From Pseudomonas vanderleydeniana (lineage in GTDB: Bacteria > Pseudomonadota > Gammaproteobacteria > Pseudomonadales > Pseudomonadaceae): a DNA stretch of 64,000 nucleotides. Location: assembly GCF_014268755.2 (NCBI RefSeq), contig NZ_CP077093.1, positions 5,010,001 through 5,074,000 on the forward strand, read 5' to 3'. Both the position numbers and the translations under genes were made by a program. The notes under the pieces are model-generated. The model worked only from the letters and a program-made list of their open reading frames with translations. It did not search any database and was not told the origin of the DNA. This document shows positions 25,012-33,859 of this stretch, one piece after another; within the stretch, counting starts at the first letter, position 1, and each line of letters starts with the position of its first letter.

Positions 25012-25902
25012 TTAACGGGTGCCAGGGATCAGGTCGAGGATCTCATCGATACCCAGGCAGCGTTGCTCCACCTCCAGCGTTCGCCCATGCGCCAGGATCC
25101 CCGTCGCCACTTCCTTCATGGCCATGTAGGCGCTGCGCAACATGTGGTTGGCGTAGATGACCACATTGAATCCCGCCTCCTGCAACTGGTCAAAACTCAA
25201 GTGCGCATAGCTGGTCGGAACGCAAACCAGCGGAACATCGGGGTAATGCACACGAAACCGTCGGGCGAACTCCAGGACCTCCTCGCCATCTTTCCTGCGG
25301 CTGTGAATCATGATGCCGTCGGCCCCCGCCTCGGCATAGGCCAGGCAACGCTCCATGGCCTCGTCCATGCCGCGGTCCAGAATCAGGCTCTCGCAACGCG
25401 CAATGATCATCATCCCCTCCGGTGACCTGCTCGCGCGGCCCAGGCGGATCTTCTGGCAGAACGCTTCGATTGATTCCTGAGCCTGAGTGACATCCGTGCC
25501 AAACAGCGAATTTTTCTTCAGGCCGCACTTGTCCTCGATCACCACGGCCCCGACACCTGCGCGCTCCAGCATCTTGACGTGGATAGCGAAGTGCTCGGGC
25601 TTGCCGCCAGTATCGGCGTCGTAAATCATCGGCAAGTCACACACATCGAAAATCTCGCGGATACCCTGCAAGCGATTGCTCGGGGACAGAATCTCGATGT
25701 CGGGCAAGCCCCGCTGGGTCGAATCGGTGAGTGAACTGGACCAGATGGCGTCATAGGCCACCCATTGGCCGGGGCCGGTTTCCAGGCGCGATTGCTCTGC
25801 CAGCAAGGCGGATATCGGGCTGTGCACTTCCAGCACCCGCAGGCAACGAAGGGTGCCCAACAGGGCGCGAAGGTTGCCTGGACGAACGACTGCTTCCTGC
25901 AT
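25012..25902 (-). CDS. pepM: Phosphoenolpyruvate mutase (PEP phosphonomutase)
   Basis: 296 residues, the usual PepM length. It converts PEP to phosphonopyruvate, forming the C-P bond. The diagnostic loop EDKCGLKKNSLFG (E123-D124-K125, five residues, N131-S132) is intact; the Asn separates it from phosphonopyruvate hydrolase, which has Thr there. The metal-site DADTGG (95-100) and the ANHMLRS segment also fit. The ATG at 25902 has a strong GAGAGG site. An alternative ATG at 25953 overlaps the fumarase stop by 4 bp but has no clear Shine-Dalgarno. It is the last gene of the seven-gene operon and defines it as a phosphonate pathway. Confidence 0.92.
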   Translation of the reverse strand: MQEAVVRPGNLRALLGTLRCLRVLEVHSPISALLAEQSRLETGPGQWVAYDAIWSSSLTDSTQRGLPDIEILSPSNRLQGIREIFDVCDLPMIYDADTGGKPEHFAIHVKMLERAGVGAVVIEDKCGLKKNSLFGTDVTQAQESIEAFCQKIRLGRASRSPEGMMIIARCESLILDRGMDEAMERCLAYAEAGADGIMIHSRRKDGEEVLEFARRFRVHYPDVPLVCVPTSYAHLSFDQLQEAGFNVVIYANHMLRSAYMAMKEVATGILAHGRTLEVEQRCLGIDEILDLIPGTR

Positions 25903-25949
25903 ATGGAACCTCTCAAAGTCGGATAGGCAATGCTCTCGGGTAGCGCTGG

Positions 25950-27335
25950 TCATGAGTGAGTCATGTCCAGGGGTACGACGAATCGATCGAACTCGTCGGG
26001 GGAGACGAAGCCCAACTGATGCGCCACCTCGCGCAAGGATTTCCCTTCGTGATGGGCGGTCTTGGCGATGATCGCGGCCTTGTCGTAGCCGATGTGTCGA
26101 TTGAGCGCCGTGACCAGCATGAGGTTCTTCTGCAGGTTGGCCTCGATTCGAGGCAGGTTCGGGGTGATGCCCTCGGCACAATGATCATTGAAGGCGCGGC
26201 ACGACTCGGCCAACAGGGTGATGCTCTCCAGCACGTTGTGCACCATCACCGGCTTGTAGACGTTGAGCTGGAAGTTGCCCTGGCTGCCGGCAAAGGCCAC
26301 CGTCGCGTCATTGCCGAAGACCTGGGTGCAGACCATGGTCAGCGCCTCGCACTGGGTCGGATTGACCTTGCCCGGCATGATCGACGAGCCGGGTTCGTTC
26401 TCGGGGATGTCGATCTCGCCAATGCCGCAACGCGGCCCGCTGGCCAGCCAGCGCACATCGTTGGCGATTTTCAGCAGGGCCATGGCCAGCGTACGGATCG
26501 CCGCGGAGGTGTTCACCAAGGCGTCATGGGCAGCCAGGGAAAAGAACTTGTTCGACGACGCCCTGAACGGATAACCGGTCAGTTCGGCGATATGCCGCGC
26601 GCACTCATCGCCAAACCGTGGATGGGCATTGAGCCCGGTGCCCACCGCCGTGCCACCGATGGCCAGGTCGTACAGCCCCTGGACATTCTGCTCGATGCCC
26701 TTGAGCGTGTAGTCGAGCTGCTCGACCCAGCCACCGATTTCCTGGCCGAGGGTGATCGGCGTTGCGTCCTGCAAGTGGGTCCGGCCGACCTTGACCACGT
26801 CGGCGAATGCCTCGGCCTTGGCCGCCAGGGTGTTGCGCAGCAGCGTCACGCCGGGAAGCAGGGTCTCGAAGACTTCACCCACGACCACCATGTACATGGC
26901 CGTCGGAAACGTATCATTCGACGACTGGCCCCGGTTGACGTGGTCGTTGGGGTGGATTGGGGTCTTGCTGCCCATTTCCCCGCCGAGCATTTCGATCGCC
27001 CGGTTGGCGATGACCTCATTGGCATTCATGTTCGACTGGGTACCGGAGCCGGTCTGGAACACCACCAGCGGAAAATGCTCGTCCAGCTGGCCGGCGATGA
27101 CTTCGTCGGCAGCCCGGACAATCGGCAAGGCAACCGACTCCGGCAACTCGCCCAGGGCGAGGTTTGCCAATGCCGCCGCCTTTTTCAGAATGCCCATCGA
27201 ACGGATCATGGGGGCGCCCCACTGGAAGCGCGAACGGCCAATGGGGAAGTGATGGATCGAGCGCTCGGTCTGCGCGCCCCAGTATTTGTCGGACGCTACC
27301 GACACAGAGCCCATGGAATCGGATTCAAGACGCAT
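25950..27335 (-). CDS. fumC: Class II fumarate hydratase, operon copy
   Basis: 461 residues, full length for FumC, with all signature segments: GSGTQSNMNANEV, NRGQSSNDTFPT, GRTHLQDATP and the mobile loop GSSIMPGKVNPT. The active-site set therefore looks intact and hydration of fumarate is expected. Two uses inside a phosphonate operon are plausible: acting on a phosphonate analogue (3-phosphonoacrylate mimics fumarate, phosphonolactate mimics malate), or replacing a housekeeping fumarase inhibited by the product. AGGAG precedes the ATG. It lies 64 bp after the diiron protein gene and just before pepM. Confidence 0.9.
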   Translation of the reverse strand: MRLESDSMGSVSVASDKYWGAQTERSIHHFPIGRSRFQWGAPMIRSMGILKKAAALANLALGELPESVALPIVRAADEVIAGQLDEHFPLVVFQTGSGTQSNMNANEVIANRAIEMLGGEMGSKTPIHPNDHVNRGQSSNDTFPTAMYMVVVGEVFETLLPGVTLLRNTLAAKAEAFADVVKVGRTHLQDATPITLGQEIGGWVEQLDYTLKGIEQNVQGLYDLAIGGTAVGTGLNAHPRFGDECARHIAELTGYPFRASSNKFFSLAAHDALVNTSAAIRTLAMALLKIANDVRWLASGPRCGIGEIDIPENEPGSSIMPGKVNPTQCEALTMVCTQVFGNDATVAFAGSQGNFQLNVYKPVMVHNVLESITLLAESCRAFNDHCAEGITPNLPRIEANLQKNLMLVTALNRHIGYDKAAIIAKTAHHEGKSLREVAHQLGFVSPDEFDRFVVPLDMTHS

Positions 27336-27399
27336 CAGGTTCTCCTGTCATCATGTCGATGACGTGATCAATCGATTATCGAAACGGTCGTCGCCGTGG

Positions 27400-32867: not shown

Positions 32868-32902
32868 AAGAAAATTCGTAATGCTTTTAAACAATTTATA
32901 AG

Positions 32903-32930
32903 ATAGGCGACTAAGGGTTCCAATACCTAT
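32903..32930. promoter_or_regulatory. Candidate LysR operator between divergent genes
   Basis: An interrupted palindrome ATAGG-N18-CCTAT lies in the 92 bp between the divergent LysR and MFS starts. LysR regulators usually bind such dyads beside their own gene. Short and imperfect, so only a candidate. Confidence 0.45.
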
Positions 32931-32959
32931 TTCCGACCGATTGATACCCAAGGATGAAC

Positions 32960-33859
32960 ATGATCGATCTGCGCCGACTGCGTTACTTTCTGACAGTCAG
33001 TGACGAGTTGCACTTCGGCCGCGCGGCCTCGCGCCTGCACATTGCCCAGCCACCCTTGACCCGGCAGATTTCCGCACTGGAAGCGGACCTGGGGTTTCGC
33101 CTGTTCGACCGCAGCACCCGCAACGTCACCCTCACCGCCGAAGGTCGCCACTTCCTGCCCTACGCCCGCGCCGTCATGGAGCAGGTCGACCTGACCACCG
33201 CCATCACCGGCAAGCTGGCGGCCGGCTCCGCAGGCCACCTGGCGGTTGGATATGCCAGTTCCATTGCCCTCTCGGACGTGTTCAGCCAGACCATCCAGGC
33301 GTTCTGCACGGCGTATCCGGACGTCCAACTGAGCGTGGAAGAAGGCGCCTCCAGCACCCAATGGGCGCACATTATCGAAGGCCGCCTGGATATCGGCTTG
33401 AGCCGCATGCAACCACCCGGTGACGACATTGACGTCCAGGCCCTCTGCCTGGACAACGAACCGCTGGTGGCGGCCATCGCCAGCGACAGCCCCCTCGCCG
33501 GACAGGCACAGGTGACACTGGCCGAACTCAGCGCCTATCCCCTGATCGCCTTCCCGGCAGACTACGGCTCAGGCCTGAACGAAATCGTCGAAACACTCTA
33601 CCGCCGCCACGCGCTGACGTGCCGCCCGGCGCCCACCGGCAAGCAGATCACCTCGATCATCGCCCTGGTCGCCGCCGGCCGTGGCGTCGCCGTGGTGCCG
33701 CAGTGCACCCAGACCCTGGCCAAGCGCGGCGTGACCTACCGGCCCCTGGCAGAACTCGAGGCCACCGCGCCCCTGCTGGTACTGACCCGCAAGCGAGAGC
33801 GCAGCCCGTTGGTCAGCGCGTTTGTCGAGGTGATCCGCAAGACGATCGGGGCGAGGTGA
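32960..33859 (+). CDS. LysR-family regulator, divergent from the phosphonate operon
   Basis: 299 residues. N-terminal winged helix (LRYFLTVSDELHFGRAASRL, then AQPPLTRQISALE) and a C-terminal two-lobed effector-binding domain (about 90-295). The ATG at 32960 is used because AAGGA sits 5 bases upstream; an ATG two codons earlier has no spacing for a ribosome site. As the divergent neighbour it is the likely switch for the seven-gene operon, probably responding to a pathway intermediate. Similar LysR genes also sit beside MFS genes in other contexts. Confidence 0.88.
   Translation: MIDLRRLRYFLTVSDELHFGRAASRLHIAQPPLTRQISALEADLGFRLFDRSTRNVTLTAEGRHFLPYARAVMEQVDLTTAITGKLAAGSAGHLAVGYASSIALSDVFSQTIQAFCTAYPDVQLSVEEGASSTQWAHIIEGRLDIGLSRMQPPGDDIDVQALCLDNEPLVAAIASDSPLAGQAQVTLAELSAYPLIAFPADYGSGLNEIVETLYRRHALTCRPAPTGKQITSIIALVAAGRGVAVVPQCTQTLAKRGVTYRPLAELEATAPLLVLTRKRERSPLVSAFVEVIRKTIGAR

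What the first reader, a model, noticed from the sequence alone, without database searches (positions are those of the whole stretch)
25012..33859. Seven-gene phosphonate-type operon built on PEP mutase without phosphonopyruvate decarboxylase
The sequence shows a tightly spaced minus-strand run: MFS, diiron protein, Fsr-type MFS, aminotransferase, diiron protein, fumarase, PEP mutase, with a divergent LysR gene. EDK-x5-NS in the mutase is intact. Known phosphonate pathways pull the mutase equilibrium with a decarboxylase, transaminase, dehydrogenase or citrate-synthase-like enzyme; here only the aminotransferase fits, suggesting phosphonoalanine as first stable intermediate. I do not recall a described cluster with this gene set.
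Basis: partly seen in the sequence, partly recalled or inferred. Interest (0 to 1): 0.93.

Follow-up and report, generated by a model that had tools for sequence, protein, structure and literature searches.

The report
Pseudomonas operon for an oxidised phosphonate
This Pseudomonas operon very probably makes a small carbon-phosphorus compound by an unusual route, in which phosphonoalanine is probably oxidised by predicted metal-dependent oxidases, and its front part is a movable cassette that also sits before a quite different operon.

Summary
The seven minus-strand genes and the divergent LysR gene are real and intact. The mutase passes the curated PEP mutase cut-off and fails the phosphonopyruvate hydrolase one. 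The two Pfam-less proteins are predicted heme-oxygenase-like dimetal oxidases (HDOs) with a complete E-H-E-H-E-H motif. Of 398 Pseudomonas genomes, 20 have a close mutase; 18 of those carry transporter-aminotransferase-HDO_A-mutase in this order, 15 the whole operon. FumC is optional (9 of 15) and forms its own clade. The aminotransferase is a PepM-linked type (52-54% to Azospirillum partners, 34% to its best-scoring paralogue). New here: LysR-MFS-HDO_B is a separable cassette. Elsewhere it precedes an unrelated operon (ATP-grasp, aldolase, acetaldehyde dehydrogenase, aminotransferase), and the window's copy groups with those. Best reading: PEP to phosphonopyruvate to phosphonoalanine, then HDO oxidation at the amino/carboxyl end to a small N-oxidised phosphonate, exported and LysR-controlled. 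Every step after phosphonopyruvate is inferred; the product is unknown. Against it: one genome keeps cassette, aminotransferase and HDO_A without any PepM, and eight have HDO_B without HDO_A. My paper searches listed no described counterpart.

The parts
25012..25953 (-). pepM, phosphoenolpyruvate mutase, 313 aa
   Evidence: TIGR02320 414.5 bits, cut-off 319.55; TIGR02321 hydrolase 148, cut-off 374.4 (run on the overlong 389-aa ORF); EDKCGLKKNS; start by ATGA overlap with FumC, 25902 possible
25950..27335 (-). fumC-like class II fumarase, 461 aa, optional member
   Evidence: TIGR00979 712.8 bits, cut-off 664.75; own clade of 9 cluster copies, 97/97; 53-56% to the other FumC of the 15 genomes searched
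27400..28230 (-). HDO_A, predicted heme-oxygenase-like dimetal oxidase, 276 aa
28259..29497 (-). class I/II aminotransferase, candidate phosphonopyruvate transaminase, 412 aa
   Evidence: PF00155; 52-54% to PepM-adjacent aminotransferases of Azospirillum and L099, best-scoring own paralogue 34%
29602..30822 (-). MFS transporter, weakly Fsr-like, likely product exporter
   Evidence: PF07690; 25% identity over 328 aa to E. coli Fsr, 56.6 bits
30815..31657 (-). HDO_B, second predicted dimetal oxidase, part of the mobile cassette
31695..32867 (-). MFS_1 transporter, part of the cassette
   Evidence: PF07690; start from the ATG conserved in 16 aligned loci
32921..32949 (+). conserved operator-like box CAATACC...GACCGAT..ATACCC in the 86-bp LysR/MFS_1 gap
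   Evidence: its CCAATACC and GACCGAT columns are invariant in 16 aligned loci and in a set of 17 that includes the other operon type; one hit in the window, 0 in 100 shuffles
32954..33859 (+). LysR-type regulator, part of the cassette
   Evidence: PF00126, PF03466; 78-87% to nine cassette LysR of the other operon type or its remnant; 94-96% to L088 and L087, 63-72% to the other phosphonate-operon LysR

Best explanation
A phosphonate biosynthesis operon in two modules. Module 1 (second MFS, aminotransferase, HDO_A, optional FumC, PepM): PepM converts PEP to phosphonopyruvate; a dedicated aminotransferase traps it as phosphonoalanine, replacing the usual decarboxylase pull; HDO_A uses O2 and a dimetal site to oxidise phosphonoalanine at its amino/carboxyl end. 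Module 2 (LysR, MFS_1, HDO_B) is a mobile cassette whose HDO_B makes a second oxidation common to alpha-amino acids from different aminotransferases. The product would be a small N-oxidised phosphonate (aldoxime, hydroxamate, nitrile or nitro type), exported by the MFS pumps, with expression set by LysR at the conserved box. Shown: mutase family, gene order, predicted HDO fold and motif, presence of the cassette in two operon types and its grouping in trees, conservation of the box. Inferred: enzyme activities, every reaction after phosphonopyruvate, the order of the two HDOs, export, LysR binding, and the product.
For: PepM equivalog score and the Asn that the hydrolase lacks. 18 of 20 Pseudomonas PepM neighbourhoods keep transporter-aminotransferase-HDO_A-PepM. 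The aminotransferase sits beside PepM without HDOs in Azospirillum L012, L013 and Pseudomonas L099, at 52-54%, against 34% for the best-scoring own paralogue. PnaA precedent for PepM coupled to a transaminase (PMC11867202 section 7). HDO fold for both proteins with all six motif residues. The 19 genomes with HDO_A among 398 all hold HDO_B too. Known HDOs acting on amino acids do N-oxygenation, decarboxylation and C-C cleavage (PMC13108848 section 4; FlcE, PMC11363339 passages). Basic residues K127, R143, K196, R251 are conserved in 26-27 of 27 HDO_A rows and not in HDO_B, which would fit a phosphonate anion. No decarboxylase over the cut-off.
Against: Genome G295 keeps cassette, aminotransferase and HDO_A (65-67% identity) with no PepM (best superfamily match 31%), so these enzymes may work without phosphonopyruvate. 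HDO_B occurs without HDO_A in 8 of 27 genomes, none of which has a close PepM, so its role need not be phosphonate-specific; the three genomes with unlinked HDO_B carry it in the other operon type or its remnant. Relatives of this HDO family also occur where no PepM was found nearby. No FlcE or PnaA sequence was compared. Foldseek E-values are weak. No product, activity or metal binding is shown. The aminotransferase could serve another keto acid.
Confidence: 0.58

Rival explanations
1. LysR-MFS_1-HDO_B is a sensing, export and detoxification cassette (self-resistance), and the product is made by PepM, the aminotransferase and HDO_A alone.
For: The cassette stands alone in G073 (L157) and precedes an unrelated operon in 7 of the 12 extra loci fetched; the phosphonate module lacks it locally in L096-L098; efflux plus regulator plus one enzyme is a common resistance layout (general knowledge).
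Against: The 19 HDO_A genomes all have HDO_B; two operons with different predicted products would need the same detoxifying oxidase; HDO_B is an HDO paralogue of HDO_A with a full motif.
Confidence: 0.25
2. The aminotransferase-HDO_A-HDO_B set is a pathway of its own on another amino acid, and PepM only adds a side branch in most genomes.
For: G295 keeps the set without PepM; the other cassette operon has an aldolase and acetaldehyde dehydrogenase that would build a non-phosphonate keto acid, and its own aminotransferase.
Against: PepM lies last in the same operon in 18 of 20 loci, L161 looks like a decaying copy that ends in a PepM remnant, and the aminotransferase type accompanies PepM in Azospirillum without HDOs.
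Confidence: 0.12
3. FumC is a biosynthetic lyase that adds fumarate to a nucleophile, as FlcB does in fluopsin C biosynthesis, so the operon works like the flc pathway.
For: Two HDOs beside a fumarase-superfamily enzyme resemble flc (two HDOs and a fumarate-adding enzyme, PMC11363339 passages); the cluster FumC is a separate clade.
Against: FumC is absent from 6 of 15 whole operons with otherwise the same gene order, and from L096-L098; it passes the class II fumarase equivalog and keeps the GSSIMPGKVNP loop; neither HDO has the FlcD V-R variant.
Confidence: 0.12
4. Ordinary phosphonate use: aminoethylphosphonate for cell surfaces, or phosphonate breakdown.
For: Most bacterial phosphonate synthesis decorates surfaces (start of the abstract of PMC6697681 as listed).
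Against: No decarboxylase over the cut-off, no nucleotidyltransferase in the operon (unlike L099), mutase not of the hydrolase type, two MFS transporters present.
Confidence: 0.05

Closest known systems
Phosphonoalamide pathway (PnaD PepM plus PnaA transaminase, Streptomyces; PMC11867202, abstract and section 7 read)
   Same: PepM pulled by an aspartate-aminotransferase-like enzyme to phosphonoalanine
   Different: There two ATP-grasp ligases make peptides; here HDOs accompany the pair and no ligase is in the operon. Sequence relation to PnaA not tested.
Fluopsin C pathway (FlcB, FlcE, FlcD; PMC11363339, passages)
   Same: Two HDOs act in series on an amino acid, with a fumarate-linked enzyme
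   Different: The pathway starts from cysteine, not PEP; FlcD has an E-H-E-H-V-R mononuclear site, both HDOs here keep E-H-E-H-E-H; FumC is optional here
Pseudomonas fosfomycin, pantaphos and flavophos clusters (2-phosphonomethylmalate route; PMC12871164, passages)
   Same: Proteobacterial PepM gene clusters for bioactive phosphonates
   Different: They pull with a homocitrate-synthase-like enzyme; this operon has none
PepM-aminotransferase loci (L099; Azospirillum L012 and L013)
   Same: Same PepM-aminotransferase pair
   Different: No HDO in the held DNA; in L099 a MobA-like NTP transferase follows

Membership tests
Phosphoenolpyruvate mutase (PepM) | Scores above the curated equivalog cut-off | tested here: met
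   TIGR02320 414.5 against 319.55 bits; the hydrolase model TIGR02321 148 against 374.4
Phosphoenolpyruvate mutase (PepM) | EDK-x5-NS with Asn, where the hydrolase 2dua has Thr | tested here: met
   EDKCGLKKNS
Phosphoenolpyruvate mutase (PepM) | C-P bond forming activity | not testable with these tools
   needs a 31P NMR assay
PnaA-type phosphonopyruvate transaminase | Aspartate-aminotransferase-like enzyme encoded with PepM | tested here: met
   PF00155; most of the top PDB matches are aspartate aminotransferases; present in 19 of 20 PepM loci (18 with HDO_A, plus L099)
PnaA-type phosphonopyruvate transaminase | Sequence kinship with PnaA and use of phosphonopyruvate with Asp | not tested
   PnaA sequence not fetched; activity needs an assay
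Heme-oxygenase-like dimetal oxidase (HDO) | Heme-oxygenase fold | tested here: met
Heme-oxygenase-like dimetal oxidase (HDO) | E-H-E-H-(D/E)-H motif | tested here: met
   27 of 27 HDO_A rows; 26-27 of 27 HDO_B rows at each position; ligands assigned by order in sequence, geometry not measured
Heme-oxygenase-like dimetal oxidase (HDO) | Match to a Pfam family such as PF14518 | tested here: not met
   no HDO-type family among the 23 families matched by 54 members at E up to 10
Heme-oxygenase-like dimetal oxidase (HDO) | Metal binding and O2-dependent catalysis | not testable with these tools
   needs purified protein
Fluopsin-type (flc) pathway | FlcD-type HDO with E-H-E-H-V-R | tested here: not met
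   both HDOs keep E and H at the last two positions
Class II fumarase | Curated cut-off and signature loop | tested here: met
   TIGR00979 712.8 against 664.75; GSSIMPGKVNP as in the solved fumarases aligned
Fsr fosmidomycin efflux family | Clear sequence kinship with E. coli Fsr | tested here: inconclusive
   25% identity over 328 aa, 56.6 bits; the other MFS 25 bits
Decarboxylase-coupled phosphonate pathway | Phosphonopyruvate decarboxylase | tested here: not met
   best 38.5 bits against cut-off 312.5 in the genome; no positive control among 14 genomes

The most novel reading that the evidence does not exclude
LysR-MFS_1-HDO_B is a portable warhead cassette: one HDO that converts an alpha-amino acid into an N-oxidised group and is plugged in front of different amino-acid-making operons. 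In the window it is combined with a PepM-aminotransferase-HDO_A module to give an oxime, hydroxamate or nitro phosphonate that mimics a carboxylate carbanion (like phosphonoacetohydroxamate for enolase, or, from memory, 3-nitropropionate-type inhibitors of dicarboxylate enzymes), with the extra FumC as self-protection in some lineages.
Probability: 0.2. Interest if true: 0.9.

Novelty: new variant of a known kind. Interest (0 to 1): 0.72.

Why it matters
If right, it adds HDO chemistry, so far mostly known from fatty and amino acids (PMC13108848 section 4), to phosphonate biosynthesis, and gives the main operon around close PepM genes in Pseudomonas (18 of 20 such genomes among 398; more distant PepM types were outside that search) a testable product. 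The two HDO families match no Pfam model, so Pfam-based surveys of HDOs would miss them. The cassette shared by two unlike operons offers a handle on what HDO_B does: find the step that both pathways share.

Tried and rejected

Taking the three 'minimal' loci L096-L098 as proof that HDO_B is not needed: withdrawn after one search showed HDO_B elsewhere in those genomes. Taking that in turn as proof that both HDOs are needed: weakened after searches showed that HDO_B there belongs to the other operon type or its remnant. More distant HDO_B relatives are not phosphonate-linked where I looked: G694 (L114, 46% identity) has no PepM match in the 19.9 kb held; the related HDO on the Azospirillum B510 plasmid has no annotated PepM within about 9 kb. 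Samples of the phylum (398 genomes) and class (369 genomes) gave few matches outside Pseudomonas: G694 for HDO_B, G1003 (31%) for HDO_A. Plasmid and viral-contig searches found only distant or chance matches. L150 (G1003) and the Nostoc plasmid stretch L149 were fetched but not analysed. One further Pseudomonas genome, G293, has only a weak partial HDO match (E 1.1e-28), not followed. Operon presence in Burkholderia, Trinickia and Roseateles is suggested by HDO homologues but their neighbourhoods were not seen.

Paper searches for a described cluster or product: judged from titles and abstract starts, lists capped at 20 rows; none described one. The library lacks most subscription papers.
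Full report
What is there. The window lies at 5,010,001-5,074,000 of a 7.03-Mb single-contig Pseudomonas genome; the closest named homologues of the HDOs are from P. asplenii and P. batumici. Starts were corrected: MFS_1 begins at 32867, leaving an 86-bp gap to LysR, and PepM probably at 25953, overlapping the FumC stop. The G+C content of the operon equals that of the window (0.624 each).

The mutase. It passes the TIGR02320 equivalog cut-off (414.5 against 319.55 bits) and is far under the phosphonopyruvate hydrolase cut-off (148 against 374.4). 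The nearest solved chains are a PepM (5unc, E 1.9e-42) and the hydrolase 2dua (1e-40), almost tied, but the hydrolase has Thr where this protein has the Asn of EDK-x5-NS. The motif was present in 94 of 94 PepM loci checked, so it confirms but does not single out this protein.

Conservation. In 398 Pseudomonas genomes, 20 have a PepM match at E up to 1e-60 (more distant PepM types are outside this). I looked at the neighbourhood of all 20: the window, 14 fetched, and five matched by coordinates to loci L007, L008, L009, L011 and L018. Fifteen have LysR-MFS_1-HDO_B-MFS-aminotransferase-HDO_A-PepM, nine of these with FumC; three (L096-L098) have only MFS-aminotransferase-HDO_A-PepM; one (L099) PepM-aminotransferase; one (L100) PepM alone. 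L010 (P. fluorescens EK007-RG4) is a further whole operon without FumC, outside that sample. Pairwise identities of operon proteins correlate (r 0.85-0.99), as expected for genes that travel together, though shared ancestry alone gives some of this.

The aminotransferase. It is 52-54% identical to aminotransferases directly beside PepM in Azospirillum L012 and L013 and in Pseudomonas L099, but only 34% to its best-scoring paralogue in the own genome (a 57-residue match to another reaches 40%). In L099 a MobA-like nucleotidyltransferase follows. This supports a PepM-dedicated transaminase. PnaA of Streptomyces is a biochemical precedent: it converts phosphonopyruvate to phosphonoalanine with Asp and so pulls PepM (PMC11867202, section 7); a putative transaminase gene in an actinomycete phosphonate cluster is discussed in the same light (PMC12723261, passages). 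I did not compare sequences with PnaA.

FumC. The cluster copy passes the class II fumarase cut-off with its signature loop. All 15 genomes searched keep another copy, 53-56% identical to the query; the nine cluster copies form a separate clade (97/97). Being optional, it is an accessory: self-resistance or a side step are both open.

The cassette. A genus-wide HDO search found HDO_B (E below 1e-100) in 27 of 398 genomes and HDO_A (E 1e-42 to 1e-46 with the HDO_B profile) in 19; all 19 HDO_A genomes have HDO_B, and eight genomes have HDO_B without HDO_A. A 28th genome, G293, has only a partial match (E 1.1e-28). I fetched 12 loci: those of the eight HDO_B-only genomes, of G295, and the unlinked copies of the three minimal genomes. 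In all 12, LysR-MFS_1-HDO_B stays together. In seven it precedes another operon: ATP-grasp protein, AbrB-type membrane protein, 4-hydroxy-2-oxovalerate aldolase (TIGR03217 over cut-off), acylating acetaldehyde dehydrogenase (TIGR03215 over cut-off), class I/II aminotransferase and an FAD-NAD(P) protein (families scored on L154, the others by tblastn). Two have the cassette and the ATP-grasp gene only (L151, L153; L153 also a short AbrB fragment), one the cassette alone (L157), one what looks like a decayed phosphonate operon with the second MFS and a 40-residue PepM remnant (L161), and one (L162, genome G295) cassette-aminotransferase-HDO_A with no mutase found in the genome. In trees of LysR and HDO_B, the window and its two close relatives group with the nine cassettes of the other operon type or its remnant (100/100), away from the other phosphonate operons. 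So the cassette has most likely been exchanged between two unlike operons; the direction is open. The CCAATACC and GACCGAT columns of the box in the LysR/MFS_1 gap are invariant in 17 aligned loci of both types and the box occurs once in the window.

How it most likely works. PEP to phosphonopyruvate (PepM; family shown, activity not), to phosphonoalanine (aminotransferase; [quoted passage not shown] survey in PMC13108848 sections 4 and 11). The product may be an aldoxime, hydroxamate, nitrile or nitro phosphonate. Phosphonoacetohydroxamate is a known synthetic enolase inhibitor (PMC12288639 passages), which shows why such a molecule could be potent. Because HDO_B serves two operons that both contain an aminotransferase, it probably acts on a feature common to alpha-amino acids; the alternative is a shared resistance cassette.

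Against this reading: G295 shows that the aminotransferase and both HDOs can persist without PepM; HDO_B is not tied to phosphonate genes; no FlcE or PnaA sequence was compared; the literature library is incomplete. The fluopsin pathway is the nearest logic for paired HDOs, but neither HDO has the FlcD variant motif and FumC is dispensable.

Novelty. None of my literature searches listed, by title or abstract start, a PepM cluster with HDOs. Term searches in the main text found no 'heme oxygenase' in two phosphonate reviews (PMC12288639, PMC13302981) and in a phosphonate genome-mining paper (PMC12723261), and no 'phosphon' in the HDO review (PMC13108848). I rate it a new variant of a known kind (PepM phosphonate operon).

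Noticed in passing
L154:192-10495 (also L152, L155, L156, L158, L159, L160): A second operon type behind the same LysR-MFS_1-HDO_B cassette: ATP-grasp, AbrB-like membrane protein, 4-hydroxy-2-oxovalerate aldolase, acylating acetaldehyde dehydrogenase, aminotransferase, FAD-NAD(P) protein. It could make a 4-hydroxynorvaline-derived compound (inference).
   Followed up: partly
L162:1565-7087 (genome G295): LysR-MFS_1-HDO_B-aminotransferase-HDO_A without the second MFS and without any PepM found in the genome. Loss of the mutase or another substrate: unexplained.
   Followed up: partly
window:24023-24892 (+): A second PEP mutase/isocitrate lyase superfamily protein converges on pepM; TIGR02320 only 90 bits (cut-off 319.55), so not filed as a mutase. 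98% identical beside the operon in L087, not found as a gene of its own in the other operon loci examined.
   Followed up: partly
window:21799-23934: N-acetylmuramidase (PF11860), a small protein without family, and an Imm33-like protein (PF24719) in a row: possible lysozyme effector and immunity set.
   Followed up: no
window:32921-32949: Very conserved box between LysR and MFS_1, shared by both operon types; likely LysR operator.
   Followed up: partly
L114:8824-11239; L148:8845-9681: Members of the Pfam-less HDO_A/B family in contexts without a detected PepM; in L114 two adjacent ones, the first apparently lacking some motif residues by eye.
   Followed up: no
L090:11376-12580: An extra LysR-like open frame on the opposite strand sits between the second MFS and the aminotransferase (read by eye, no family search).
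   Followed up: no
L099:12167-15121: PepM, class I/II aminotransferase and MobA-like nucleotidyltransferase in a row; the PepM-aminotransferase pair recurs in Azospirillum L012 and L013. No decarboxylase noticed nearby, but none was searched for there.
   Followed up: partly
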